Shown: positions 48,652-52,519 of the stretch, piece after piece | How positions within the stretch are numbered: position 1 is the stretch's first letter | Layout: each line of letters begins with the position of its first letter | Assembly (NCBI GenBank): GCA_902565895.1 | Contig: CACFGV010000007.1 | Coordinates: 1 to 64,000, forward strand | DNA: 64,000 bases | Direction of reading: 5' to 3' | Origin: K189A clade bacterium | Lineage (GTDB): Bacteria; Pseudomonadota; Gammaproteobacteria; Pseudomonadales; Azotimanducaceae | Notes under the pieces: generated by a model | Databases searched by the model: none | The model's input: the letters and a program-made list of their open reading frames with translations, nothing else | What the model was told of the DNA's origin: nothing | Translations under genes and position numbers: made by a program

Positions 48652-49509
48652 TTATTCAACCTTCAGCCAATACCCACCGTCTGGCAGCGCTTTAACGTGG
48701 CCTGCGGTTGGAGTCGCGAAATGGGTGCCAATGACCAAAGTGTCTTGATCCACCAATTCAGCAAGTAGGTTTTCTCTAGTCCAACGCCCCTGGGACTGGT
48801 CGTAGTCCGCGGAGGAACACCAATCTGTGCGGGTCATCTGTACCGGGTGATGAATACAGTCGCCGGTGATGAGGGCACTTTGACCCGCGGATTCGATCTT
48901 TATCGAGACGTGCCCCGGGGTGTGGCCTGGTGTAGATTGCAGCGAAACCTCTGTGCACAACTGGTGGTCAGTTGCTACTAAATCTACAAGACCGGCATCG
49001 ACAACTGGACGGACGGAATCCGCCAAAACGGGGCCGTATTGAGACTCGTCCTCGTTGGCATCCCAGTAACGCCACTCGGTCTCGCCGATCAAGTAGCGCG
49101 CATTTGGAAAGGTCGGCAACCACTCGCCATCTACCAACATAGTATTCCAACCCACATGGTCGACATGCAGGTGGGTACACAAGACATAGTCGATTGATTC
49201 TCTGGGATATCCTGCCGCTGTAAGTTGTTGCAGAAAATCGGTTTGCAGATGCGACCAAGTGGGTATGTTGCGCTCTTTGTCGTTACCGATGCAGGTATCG
49301 ACAACGATGCGATATTTACCGGTATCTACGATCAGCGCATGGACGCTCATAATCAAATTTCCCTGCCCGTCCATAAAGTGTGGTTGCATCCAGCCTATGG
49401 GCTTGCAGGCATCTCGGGTTGCGTCAGGCAAGATAAAACGGCTGCCCCCAGTGGTTTCCATTTCAATGACCCGAGTAATCTTGACCGTACCAATTTGCCA
49501 AGTGTTCAT
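48652..49509 (-). CDS. MBL-fold metallo-hydrolase
   Basis: ATG 49509 (MNTWQIGTVKITRVIEME) follows a GGGGGAG site and gives 285 residues; longer frames reach 49575. The zinc motif THLHVDHVGWNT is present, with further ligands in STPGHTPGHVS and LITGDCIHHP. The family includes lactonases and hydrolases of many esters, so the substrate is open. It is divergent from the acyl-CoA ligase gene, and a promoter for that gene lies just upstream. Confidence 0.9.
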   Translation of the reverse strand: MNTWQIGTVKITRVIEMETTGGSRFILPDATRDACKPIGWMQPHFMDGQGNLIMSVHALIVDTGKYRIVVDTCIGNDKERNIPTWSHLQTDFLQQLTAAGYPRESIDYVLCTHLHVDHVGWNTMLVDGEWLPTFPNARYLIGETEWRYWDANEDESQYGPVLADSVRPVVDAGLVDLVATDHQLCTEVSLQSTPGHTPGHVSIKIESAGQSALITGDCIHHPVQMTRTDWCSSADYDQSQGRWTRENLLAELVDQDTLVIGTHFATPTAGHVKALPDGGYWLKVE

Positions 49510-49590
49510 GCGCTCCCCCCAGTCTTCAAAGTCGTTCATCCCCGATGCTTTGCCGAATAAAACACACCCCACCAACGCAGTACAAGGGCG

Positions 49591-49619
49591 TTAATTTTGC
49601 TATCTTTTAGGACTATAAA
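49591..49619 (+). promoter_or_regulatory. Sigma-70-like promoter for the fatty-acyl-CoA ligase gene
   Basis: A -10 TATAAA (49614-49619) lies 17 bp after a weak -35 TTAATT (49591-49596). The transcript would begin near 49626 and reach the GTG start at 49638 almost directly, with AGGAGA in between. The leader would be very short. Confidence 0.45.
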
Positions 49620-49637
49620 AGAACAGGAGAAGGTCTC

Positions 49638-51446
49638 GTGGGGGTAATCGACACCGTAAAAACGCTGAGCTATCTGCCAGCTTTATTGAAACTAAAAAAA
49701 GGTATGACTCCGCGACCGGCTGAGGTCACGGACAGCTTTGGCGCGCGGGTTGAAGCCAATGCTCAGAACTACCCCAACGCCTGTGCCATTATTTTCGAAG
49801 GCCAGCAAATGACTTGGTTTGAGTTCAATGCGCTGGCTAATCGTTTCGCGCATTATTTCGAGGACCAGGGCGTAAAACGCGGTGATGTGGTGAGCATCAT
49901 GATGGAAAATCGCATTGAATATCTGGCGCTGTTGGTAGGCTTGAACAAACTTGGCGCCATAAGCGGTTTGCTCAATTCCAACCTCGGTGGTGCGTCCCTG
50001 GTTCACTGCATTAACGTAACCGGATCTTCTAAGTGCATTGTGGGTGAAGAATGCATGACCGAGCTGGACGCGGTGCAAGAGCAACTGAATCTGCAAACAG
50101 GTTCCGATTTCTTTTTCGTTAAGGACGAAGGCGCCAAGCCTTGCCCCAATTGGGCCCAGGATCTGATGACCAGCAGTGCCGAATTGAGCGAAGAAAACCC
50201 CGCTCAAACTAACGACACCACCATTGGCGAAACTGCCTTGTACATCTACACGTCTGGGACTACCGGGCTGCCAAAGGCAGCCATTCTGTCTAACCGTCGT
50301 TATCTGATCGCTGCGGATATGTCATCCAAGGCCGGGCTAAACTGCAACGCTAATGATCGTATCTATCTGTGCCTACCCCTGTATCACGCCACTGGGTTGC
50401 TGCTGGGCGCTGGGGCTGCCTTTGCATCGGGTGCCAGTATGTTTGTGCGCAGAAAGTTCTCTGCCAGTAACTTCTTGCGCGAGGTTCGCGAGTACAACTG
50501 CACGCACATGATCTACATTGGTGAGCTGTGCCGATACCTAACCAACATTCCAGCTCAGGCTGATGACGCAAACAATCCTTTACACAGCATCATGGGTAAC
50601 GGCATGCGTCCCGACATTTGGATGGATTTCAAAAAACGCTACGGCATTAACCGGGTGTGTGAATTTTACGGCGCATCAGAGGGCAACGTTTCCTTTGCCA
50701 ACTTAATGAACAAAGACATGACTGTAGGCATGACCTCTGCCGAGGTGGCGGTCGTGGAATACGATGTCGACAACGACGAGATCGTTCGAGATCAAAATGG
50801 TCGTTGCCAGTTGGTTGCAGAAGGCGAACCGGGACTGCTGCTGGGGAAGATCACCCCTGACACTGTTTTTGAGGGTTATACCGACTCCGAAGCGACCGAA
50901 AAGAAGGTCATTCGCGACGCGTTTGCTGATGGCGACGCCTGGTTTAACACCGGCGACCTTATGCGTACGGTGGATGTAGGTTTTAATCTAGGTTATCCAC
51001 ACTACCAGTTTGTTGATCGAGTGGGTGACACCTTCCGTTGGAAAGCTGAGAACGTCTCTACCAACGAGGTGGGAGAAATTATCAACGGCTTTGATCAGGT
51101 TAAGTTCTGCAATGTCTATGGGGTCGAGATTCCCGGTACCGATGGCCGTGCGGGTATGGCGGCGTTTACTATACAGGATGGCGTCGAAACGCTGGATTTA
51201 ACGCGGTTTGCCGAATATGTGAGAGAGCATTTGCCCAGTTACGCCGTACCGGTGTTCCTGCGCGTACAACCAGAGATTGACGTCACCGGCACCTTCAAAA
51301 TGCTCAAGGGCGATCTGCGCAAGCAAGGCTACGATATCAATATGACAGACGACCCGATCTTCGTAATGAAAAGCGGAGAATCCACCTACAGCCCTATGGA
51401 CAGCGACTATCTGACCTTGATTCGCGAAAGTCAGGCCGGTTTTTAG
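49638..51446 (+). CDS. Long/very-long-chain fatty-acyl-CoA ligase (FATP/FadD6-like)
   Basis: The 602-residue product has the AMP-binding P-loop YIYTSGTTGLPKAAI, and FYGASEGNVSF where many ligases have YGxTE. FRWKAENVSTNEVGEII in the C-terminal part is typical of the FATP branch. It activates fatty acids, or possibly sterol side chains, as CoA esters. The start is GTG, with AGGAGA. The stop codon TAG forms the left edge of the inverted-repeat element. Confidence 0.92.
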   Translation: MGVIDTVKTLSYLPALLKLKKGMTPRPAEVTDSFGARVEANAQNYPNACAIIFEGQQMTWFEFNALANRFAHYFEDQGVKRGDVVSIMMENRIEYLALLVGLNKLGAISGLLNSNLGGASLVHCINVTGSSKCIVGEECMTELDAVQEQLNLQTGSDFFFVKDEGAKPCPNWAQDLMTSSAELSEENPAQTNDTTIGETALYIYTSGTTGLPKAAILSNRRYLIAADMSSKAGLNCNANDRIYLCLPLYHATGLLLGAGAAFASGASMFVRRKFSASNFLREVREYNCTHMIYIGELCRYLTNIPAQADDANNPLHSIMGNGMRPDIWMDFKKRYGINRVCEFYGASEGNVSFANLMNKDMTVGMTSAEVAVVEYDVDNDEIVRDQNGRCQLVAEGEPGLLLGKITPDTVFEGYTDSEATEKKVIRDAFADGDAWFNTGDLMRTVDVGFNLGYPHYQFVDRVGDTFRWKAENVSTNEVGEIINGFDQVKFCNVYGVEIPGTDGRAGMAAFTIQDGVETLDLTRFAEYVREHLPSYAVPVFLRVQPEIDVTGTFKMLKGDLRKQGYDINMTDDPIFVMKSGESTYSPMDSDYLTLIRESQAGF

Positions 51447-51671
51447 TGCTCCGACCACCTAAAATTTAGCATCAGAGAACGCCAGCTTCGGGCTGGCAAG
51501 GCAGCGAGAGGAGGACTATCTGGATATTGCGAAGAACGATAACGCAGTCAGTGTAAAGCTGGCGTTCTCCTATAGGACGGGCCTGTGGAAACCACCACAC
51601 CTGCGGTGTGCCACCTTGCGCGGGAATCCCACCGACCCGCTGATCTTAAAGTTTAGGTGGTTGGAGCGCTA
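51444..51671. mobile_element. 228-bp element with 32-bp imperfect terminal inverted repeats (MITE-like or structured RNA)
   Basis: The left arm (51444-51475) and right arm (51640-51671) are complementary over 32 positions, with only a few mismatches, two of which would be G-U pairs in RNA. TA dinucleotides bound both ends. Inside, a perfect 14-bp pair (51475-51488 with 51556-51569) competes with a local hairpin, GCCAGC-TTCGG-GCTGGC. A third hairpin reads CACACC-TGC-GGTGTG. There is no open frame. The right arm carries GGAG, the apparent RBS of the next gene. Confidence 0.75.
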
Positions 51672-52274
51672 GTGCCCAAGGCGGTACTGCTGGATCTCGG
51701 CGGCGTCGTGCTTGGTATTAACGTAGCCCAGGTTTTTCAAACCTGGGCCGCCTGCGCGGGCGTGACCGCCGACCATTTCAAGCACAACTGGATTATGGAT
51801 GAAGCCTACGAGCTACACGAAACCGGCGATATTGATTTCGTTGAATACGCGCGCCGGCAAGCTCAACACTTTGCCGTAGACATGCCCATAAGCGACTGGC
51901 AAGCCGGATGGAACGCTATTTGGACTGAGCCTTATGCCCAAGTGGTATCAGTGCTGCCCGAAATCGCTCAACGGTTCGAGCTGTATGCATTTAGCAATAC
52001 CAATGCCGTACATGCAGAGTCGTTCTTAACCAGATATCCAGATGCTCTTGCGCACTTTAATACCTTGTTTTTATCTCACGAGATTGGTGTGCGTAAGCCC
52101 CATCCCCAAGCGTTTAGATACGTATGCGACTTGATCGATATCCAGCCCCAAGAGGTCCTGTTTATCGATGACAACGCAGACAACATAAATGGGGCACGCG
52201 CAGCAGGGCTGGATGCCCACCACTTGCACAAAGAATACGACATTGCGCAAAAATTGCGGCGCTTGTTGGCTTAG
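51672..52274 (+). CDS. HAD-superfamily hydrolase, YihX-like
   Basis: I take GTG 51672 (VPKAVLLDLGGVVLGIN) as the start, because GGAG lies 5 bp before it; an in-frame GTG at 51657 is within the inverted repeat. The 200-residue product has motif I DLGGVV, motif II FSNTN and motif IV FIDDNADNINGARAAG, closely like E. coli YihX. YihX dephosphorylates alpha-D-glucose 1-phosphate; the substrate here is not shown. Its stop overlaps the end of the convergent ykgJ-like gene. Confidence 0.87.
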   Translation: MPKAVLLDLGGVVLGINVAQVFQTWAACAGVTADHFKHNWIMDEAYELHETGDIDFVEYARRQAQHFAVDMPISDWQAGWNAIWTEPYAQVVSVLPEIAQRFELYAFSNTNAVHAESFLTRYPDALAHFNTLFLSHEIGVRKPHPQAFRYVCDLIDIQPQEVLFIDDNADNINGARAAGLDAHHLHKEYDIAQKLRRLLA

Positions 52275-52519
52275 GTTTTGAGTTCCAACAATGCGATGAG
52301 GGATAACGCTTGGTCCCGATTCTCCCCACAAATCGAGGGCTCGGCTCTAAAGTCTGCACACACTTGAGGACGCCGCGGGTCACCAAAAAGTTGGCAGGCA
52401 AAGTCATCTGACAAATGCTGGCACCGCACCCCAGCAGGTTTACCACCTGGCATACCTGGAAGAGGTGTGGAAATGGAAGGCGCGATGCAACACGCTCCAC
52501 ACCCCCTACGACATTCCAC
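52271..52519 (-). CDS. YkgJ-family cysteine cluster protein
   Basis: The 82-residue product has the pattern CRRGCGACC near the N-terminus, then CQHL, CQLFGDPRRPQVCADF and CGENRDQA, the cysteine spacing of the YkgJ family. It probably binds an Fe-S cluster or zinc. The start is GTG, 2 bp after the stop of the LLM gene, so the two are co-transcribed. Confidence 0.88.
   Translation of the reverse strand: MECRRGCGACCIAPSISTPLPGMPGGKPAGVRCQHLSDDFACQLFGDPRRPQVCADFRAEPSICGENRDQALSLIALLELKT

What the first reader, a model, noticed from the sequence alone, without database searches (positions are those of the whole stretch)
51444..51671. Inverted-repeat element that spans the junction of two genes and supplies a stop codon and an RBS
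The left and right 32-bp ends are complementary except for a few positions, and both are bounded by TA. The upstream acyl-CoA ligase stop TAG is the very left edge; GGAG of the downstream YihX-like gene is in the right arm, and its GTG start follows directly. Within the element one segment (GCCAGC) can pair locally or at long range, so two folds are possible. If transcribed, the closing stem would hide the RBS. It could be a MITE of the TA-target type that was adopted as a regulatory structure, or a structured RNA in its own right. No family is known to me.
Basis: seen in the sequence. Interest (0 to 1): 0.62.

Follow-up and report, generated by a model that had tools for sequence, protein, structure and literature searches.

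The report
Small mobile hairpin element between genes
A short mobile DNA repeat that cannot move on its own landed exactly between two genes of an uncultured bacterium; it belongs to an apparently undescribed family that is abundant in a related genome, but it is an ordinary kind of element and nothing shows that the cell uses it as a switch.

Summary
The feature is real: 51444-51671 is a 228-bp inverted-repeat element (32-nt arms, 84% complementary) lying exactly between an acyl-CoA ligase stop (TAG) and the start (GTG) of a HAD hydrolase. It is not unique. It is one old copy of a MITE (non-autonomous transposon) family: a second two-ended copy and six single ends or remnants in the same genome, and 131 ends in a congener (G006), where resolved full copies are 263 bp with near-identical arms. 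Only these two of 40 genomes of the genus clearly carry it. Of 67 distinct G006 ends read, 64 lie at CTAG. The six closest relatives lack the element at this gene junction; five carry TTAG there, in the ligase stop codon. So the stop codon is the target site, not something the element supplies. The GGAG does come from the arm, but the listed G006 ends lack it and G006 copies are not enriched near start codons. Abutting gene stops is explained by avoidance of gene interiors. Paired changes in the stem fit co-evolving transposon ends; folding does not support a switch. No partner transposase was found; the target fits IS630-, IS5- or IS701-type enzymes. New member of a known kind; modest interest.

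The parts
49638..51446 (+). acyl-CoA ligase (AMP-binding enzyme) gene; its TAG stop 51444-51446 overlaps the left end of the element
   Evidence: ORF; Pfam PF00501 E 1.8e-55 and PF13193
51444..51671 (.). MITE copy, 228 bp, terminal inverted repeats with two internal hairpin modules
   Evidence: 13 G006 matches, 79-83% identical to the first 121-145 bases, and 2 to the right part, 72-73%; alignment A3 with five full-length G006 copies
51444..51475 (+). left terminal inverted repeat
   Evidence: TIR model R1 match, 34.4 bits, E 5.7e-8 (this row was in the model)
51640..51671 (-). right terminal inverted repeat
   Evidence: R1 match 51640-51672, 31.9 bits, E 3.7e-7 (this row was in the model)
51443..51446 (.). 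left target-site copy, TTAG (contains the ligase stop codon)
   Evidence: read; TTAG in the ligase stop of 5 of the 6 closest relatives, which lack the element
51669..51672 (.). right target-site copy, CTAG (its G is the first base of the GTG start)
   Evidence: read
51475..51569 (+). internal module A, imperfect hairpin with 14-nt perfect inner arms 51475-51488 / 51556-51569; shared with the G006 copies
51570..51639 (+). internal module B, diverged and 33 columns shorter than in the G006 copies; absent from the short G006 copy L030
51663..51666 (+). GGAG, Shine-Dalgarno-like, in the right arm, 5 nt before GTG; pairs with CTCC 51449-51452
   Evidence: read; pairing
51672..52274 (+). HAD-superfamily hydrolase gene, GTG start
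   Evidence: Pfam PF00702 E 5.7e-16; start lines up with ATG of relatives

Best explanation
It is an old copy of a miniature inverted-repeat transposable element (MITE) family that, as far as tested, is confined to two genomes of one genus of Pseudomonadales. The element codes for nothing; a DDE-type transposase encoded elsewhere (not found) recognises the roughly 33-nt ends and inserts the element at CTAG/TTAG. Here the site was the YTAG holding the ligase stop codon. Insertion leaves a copy of the site at each side, so the left copy keeps the stop codon, the right copy supplies the G of the GTG start, and neither gene is broken. The copy has since decayed (arms 27 of 33 alike against 29 to 33 of 33 in six G006 copies). 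The arm happens to carry GGAG before the HAD start, which may now serve as a ribosome-binding site. Shown: copies, ends, target, element-free relatives. Inferred: transposase in trans, duplication length, any use of GGAG.
For: Second two-ended copy in the own genome (99 bp, G000:C8). In congener G006, 66 forward and 66 reverse ends against 0 for the reversed-pattern control. End model R1: 131 hits in G006, 10 in G000, one weak hit each in G003 and G015 (E 0.026, 0.036; about 2 chance hits expected over 40 genomes at this threshold), none in 36 others. G006: 64 of 67 distinct ends have C before TAG (the pattern required TAG). Two ends lie back to back and share one CTAG (L037). Six closest orthologous junctions (70-75% identical HAD proteins): no element, TTAG at the ligase stop in five, TAA in one. 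Six two-ended G006 copies have near-perfect arms. Truncated, mini and single-arm derivatives exist, as usual for decaying transposons.
Against: No autonomous element with these ends was found: among the R1 hits listed for G006 and G000, the eight adjacent pairs that face inward are 99-265 bp apart, and 40 loci around PF13546/PF01609 transposases gave no R1 hit. Both genomes are drafts. The duplication is not clean in the window (left TTAG, right CTAG), so a 4-bp duplication needs one later change. Only one element-free junction was examined; those of the other copies were not.
Confidence: 0.88

Rival explanations
1. The element was domesticated as a translational control device: the long stem hides GGAG/GTG of the HAD gene, and a ribosome finishing the ligase at the left edge opens the stem or is brought next to the start by it, so that the second gene is translated only after the first.
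For: Stop codon UAG and the CUA just before GTG are paired with each other in the free fold, and CTCC 3-6 nt after the stop pairs with GGAG. Five of the six closest relatives have the start 8-11 nt after the stop, which suggests coupling in the ancestor. No sigma70-like match between 49500 and 52300, against 2.4 on average in shuffles. The second copy in the genome also lies just upstream of a start, with GGAG 8 nt before ATG (L002).
Against: With the bases a terminating ribosome would cover removed, or with the left arm absent, the model re-pairs GGAG elsewhere (unpaired probabilities 0.02, 0.05, 0.88, 0.11 in the first case) and GTG stays paired. Arms have lost pairs since insertion. G006 copies show no preference for start codons.
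Confidence: 0.1
2. A structured RNA (riboswitch or leader type) conserved for its own function, not a transposon.
For: z -6.3; 8 of 46 stem pairs changed on both sides, 0 of 500 shuffles as many; of 101 pairs in the consensus fold 11 have a both-sided change, four of them inside modules A and B.
Against: Dozens of copies in one genome at unrelated sites, nearly all at CTAG; absent at the same gene pair in the six closest relatives. Transposon ends change in step without RNA selection. The covariation term of the consensus fold is unfavourable, +2.4 kcal/mol. No Rfam match.
Confidence: 0.03
3. Not a MITE family of its own but the remnants of one longer insertion sequence whose middle was deleted many times.
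For: Modules A and B vary in presence and length.
Against: Five resolved two-ended G006 copies have the same 263-bp length and structure, and a sixth is a 159-bp relative, so a short form itself spread.
Confidence: 0.05

Closest known systems
MITEPsy1 of Pseudomonas syringae (PMC3189936, passages read)
   Same: Short non-coding element with inverted ends, inserts at CTAG (or YTAA), found between genes as well as in them
   Different: 100 nt, 18-nt ends of unrelated sequence (GGAAGGTC..), likely parent ISPsy2 named, transposition observed, 4-nt duplication observed
TA-ended bacterial repeats such as RUP (mobilised, by indirect evidence, by IS630-Spn1) and Correia/NEMIS (PMC2229807, passages)
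   Same: TA at the ends, inverted repeats, long stem-loops in transcripts; IS630 is reported to prefer TA within CTAG (title of Tenzen and Ohtsubo 1991, seen only in the reference list of PMC2170065)
   Different: No IS630-type transposase was looked for here, and end sequences were not compared with IS630 members
IS701-type insertion sequence in the same genus (G006, L186:1386-2776)
   Same: Flanked by CTAG on both sides and its left end begins TGCT, as the MITE ends do
   Different: Its ends continue ACTGTGTTA (right end begins TACT), the MITE ends CAAACCACTT; carries a 403-codon transposase frame

Membership tests
MITE (non-autonomous transposon), in general | terminal inverted repeats | tested here: met
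   27 to 33 of 33 alike in 7 of the 8 two-ended copies compared, 21 of 33 without gaps in L002
MITE (non-autonomous transposon), in general | multiple dispersed copies without coding capacity | tested here: met
   longest frame inside the two 263-bp copies that measured is 68 codons
MITE (non-autonomous transposon), in general | target-site duplication | tested here: inconclusive
   CTAG or TTAG at both ends of 5 of 8 two-ended copies, the other 3 with one altered side, and element-free relatives with one TTAG; but TA and CTAG duplication give the same sequence when the site is CTAG
MITE (non-autonomous transposon), in general | autonomous partner with matching ends | tested here: not met
   no inward-facing adjacent pair longer than 265 bp among R1 hits listed for G006 and G000; draft genomes, so absence is weak
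IS630/Tc1-mariner-derived MITE | duplication of TA | tested here: inconclusive
   window left TTAG and right CTAG with TTAG in element-free relatives fits TA duplication; the base next to the element is G in every G006/G000 end while the outer base varies; few exceptions
IS630/Tc1-mariner-derived MITE | ends matching an IS630-family element | not tested
IS701-derived MITE | 4-bp duplication | tested here: inconclusive
   same data as above; 4-bp duplication of IS701 from PMC2266710 (passages), though two Geobacillus members gave 4-9 bp without a consensus (PMC8024623, passages)
IS701-derived MITE | ends matching an IS701-family element | tested here: not met
   only TGCT shared with L186; no R1 hit in any of 40 transposase loci
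Known structured RNA family | Rfam covariance-model match | tested here: not met
   0 at gathering score; one chance-level match E 2.4

The most novel reading that the evidence does not exclude
The insertion was tolerated because its transcript folds out: the 32-bp stem pairs the stop codon of the first gene with the bases directly before the start of the second, so the ribosome that terminates is set down beside the new Shine-Dalgarno and coupling survives a 225-nt insertion. The mobile element would then act as a ready-made translational bridge at operon junctions.
Probability: 0.08. Interest if true: 0.6.

Novelty: new member of a known kind. Interest (0 to 1): 0.3.

Why it matters
It adds an apparently undescribed MITE family with a strict CTAG site and shows how such a site choice can land elements on TAG stop codons without harm. 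Two genomes of one genus hold it at very different copy number and age, so bursts and decay of a MITE can be followed. It also warns that a stem spanning a stop and a start codon, with paired changes, can come from a transposon alone.

Tried and rejected
Stop-codon steering: in G006 (55 fetched contig pieces), 16 of 62 element sides abut a gene's TAG stop against 31 of 554 background CTAG sides (p 2e-6), but against CTAG sites outside genes (31 of 170 sides) the excess is no longer clear (odds ratio 1.6, p 0.20). An earlier cruder count gave 18 of 65 element sides with at least 400 bp of flank, against 60 of 880 site-strands. Rejected as a special preference.

RBS supply as a family trait: 3 of 60 G006 sides have a start within 30 nt outward, against 95 of 705; rejected.

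IS701 partner: one intact IS701-type element plus a fragment in G006, the intact one with CTAG flanks but different ends; none of the other 39 genomes of the genus has PF13546 at E 0.001. In a sample of 390 genomes of the order, 27 have PF13546. Of 39 transposase loci examined (L186, L220-L257; only CTAG was tried as border), L186 (again as L254), L222 and, for PF01609, L252 showed CTAG-flanked inverted ends with 16 of 20 matches; the rest had 13 or fewer. None matched R1.

Wider distribution: no match in 56 of 58 relatives. The order sample (390 genomes drawn evenly, G006 not among its matches) gave G000 and one 34-base match in G349, and by exact end pattern one hit each in G000 and G352. 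Viral contigs 0 for one exact pattern; plasmids (G006 copy) and phages (window copy) no match. In genome contigs 55 of 93 stretches are JANQKS contigs (the G006 genome); among the other 38 only L101 showed a weak partner end (19 of 26, 2754 bp apart), not followed, and I take them for chance. The weak R1 hits in G003 and G015 were not inspected.

Literature: searches with IS701/YTAR (0 papers), MITE/CTAG sets, IS701/CTAG, MITE with ribosome binding site, IS630/CTAG. No listed title or abstract start described this family. I saw an abstract and passages, no whole paper. I recall, without a call, that quasi-palindromes can be corrected by template switching.

Full report
What was claimed and what is there. 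The inverted-repeat element exists at the stated coordinates. Its arms are 32 nt and 84% complementary. It begins in the TAG stop of an acyl-CoA ligase gene (ORF 49638-51446; PF00501) and ends directly before the GTG of a HAD hydrolase gene (PF00702). As RNA it folds to -103.7 kcal/mol, z -6.3, 0 of 200 shuffles as stable. The two alternative pairings of GCCAGC exist; the long-range one wins by 8 kcal/mol, and the consensus fold of six copies uses it.

It is a repeat. A BLAST search of the window's own draft genome (2.02 Mb, 87 contigs, 69% complete) finds one further piece, on contig 8, which turns out to be a complete 99-bp copy with both ends. In the genus, G006 holds many copies: 13 matches of 79-83% identity to the first 121-145 bases of the window element, and 2 to its right part. 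An end pattern with up to three mismatches gives 66 forward and 66 reverse matches, against none for the reversed pattern. Many ends lie 45-200 bases from a contig end, as expected of a repeat that breaks short-read assembly.

A sequence-only model of the ends (13 rows), run over 40 genomes of the genus, gives 131 hits in G006, 10 in G000 and one weak hit each in G003 and G015 (E 0.026 and 0.036, not inspected); about two chance hits are expected at this threshold. The other 36 have none. The ten hits in G000 are the two ends of the window copy, the two ends of the contig-8 copy, and six single ends or remnants (C2, C6 twice, C13, C14, C35). I looked at five of these six in context (C2, C6 twice, C13, C14) and read the sequence around C35. 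Seven of the 13 model rows come from G000, so its hits to those rows are by construction; C13, C14 and C35 were not in the model.

Anatomy. Resolved two-ended G006 copies are 263 bp (five: L020, L024, L027, L258, L259), plus one of 159 bp that has module A only (L030). Arms are 29 to 33 of 33 alike in these, 27 in the window copy and 21 (ungapped) in L002. So the window copy is older and decaying. The window copy shares module A well and has a shortened, diverged module B.

Target. Of 67 distinct G006 ends found with a pattern that includes TAG, 64 have C before TAG, 2 T, 1 A. A count without requiring TAG gave 66 CTAG among 93 rows; that set includes chance matches in other genomes, and the G006/G000 exceptions with good end sequence were TTAG (two), ATAG, CTGG and ACAG, with G always next to the element. 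Two further non-CTAG ends were read later: CCAG in L259 and CTGG in L266. In C24 an end and a truncated copy lie back to back with one CTAG between them.

Relatives at this junction. I fetched 30 HAD loci of the genus, the window's own among them; 29 gave a readable start region. The six closest proteins (70-75% identity; the next is 52%) lie next to a ligase 3' end and have no element. In five the ligase ends TATTAG and the HAD ATG follows 8 to 11 nt later; in the sixth (G022) the stop is TAA and the start unclear. G006 has no close HAD relative (best E 2.3e-9), so this junction cannot be compared there. So the TAG stop codon is host sequence that served as the target. A TTAG target with duplication of TA gives exactly the observed left TTAG and right CTAG; a 4-bp duplication would need one later change. 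I lean to TA within CTAG, but a CTAG site cannot tell the two apart. Four more distant relatives have TTCTAG there (L162, L163, L165, L168), so a CTAG ancestor followed by a silent C to T change is also possible.

Transposase. None was found. The only intact PF13546 (IS701-type) element in the genus is in G006; it is flanked by CTAG and its left end starts TGCT, but its ends then differ. A PF01609 element in G006 (L252) is also flanked by CTAG, with other ends. Known precedents for CTAG are MITEPsy1 (PMC3189936, passages) and IS630 (title in a reference list). IS630-type transposases were not searched.

Function. Three tests speak against a family role at gene junctions. There is no clear excess at gene stops once gene interiors are set aside. 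There is no excess near starts. The G006 ends listed (the first part of 132) all read GCTCAAAC, so they carry no GGAG. At least four of the eight G000 loci do abut a TAG stop on one side: ligase, a rubredoxin-like protein, a dUTPase-like protein and a transporter-like protein (these three names are my reading of the translations, not a search). This agrees with the site choice. Eight of 46 stem pairs change on both sides (0 of 500 shuffles; slid controls 0 to 3). About half of these set the window copy apart from G006; others fall within G006 (columns 14-250, 18-246, 20-244), so arms change in step inside single copies, as ends that must both be recognised would. Four pairs inside modules A and B also change on both sides (50-110, 51-109, 140-226, 148-218); this could reflect structure, or mutational correction of a quasi-palindrome. 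The covariation term of the consensus fold is unfavourable, +2.4. The folding model hides GGAG in the full stem, but GGAG stays mostly paired when the left arm is removed, so no switch follows from it. No sigma70-like match was found from 49500 to 52300; this says little for an organism with unknown promoters.

Verdict. Apparently undescribed MITE family, ordinary in kind; the position between stop and start is explained by the target sequence. What remains open is the transposase, the exact duplication, and whether this one copy's GGAG is used by the HAD gene, whose close relatives mostly start 8-11 nt after the ligase stop and so may rely on coupling.

Noticed in passing
G006: L044, L054, L090, L114, L116, L266: Six 'solo' units of the same make: CTAG (TTAG in L114, CTGG in L266), then TGCTCAAACCACTTGAAAA, then CTAG, i.e. 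one arm without the rest and with a target copy at both sides. Identical breakpoints six times suggest a mechanism such as aberrant excision or slippage rather than random deletion.
   Followed up: partly
L186:1386-2776: IS701-type insertion sequence of 1391 bp including CTAG at both sides, the only intact PF13546 element found in 40 genomes of the genus.
   Followed up: partly
L252:924-1744: 821-bp stretch around a PF01609 transposase in G006, also flanked by CTAG, ends GGCGTGTTAACACTA.
   Followed up: no
L002:1442-1540: Second two-ended copy in the own genome directly upstream of an ATG, with GGAG of its arm 8 nt before that start.
   Followed up: partly
L267:454-501: Mini copy of about 48 bp in which both ends remain around a tiny centre.
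   Followed up: no
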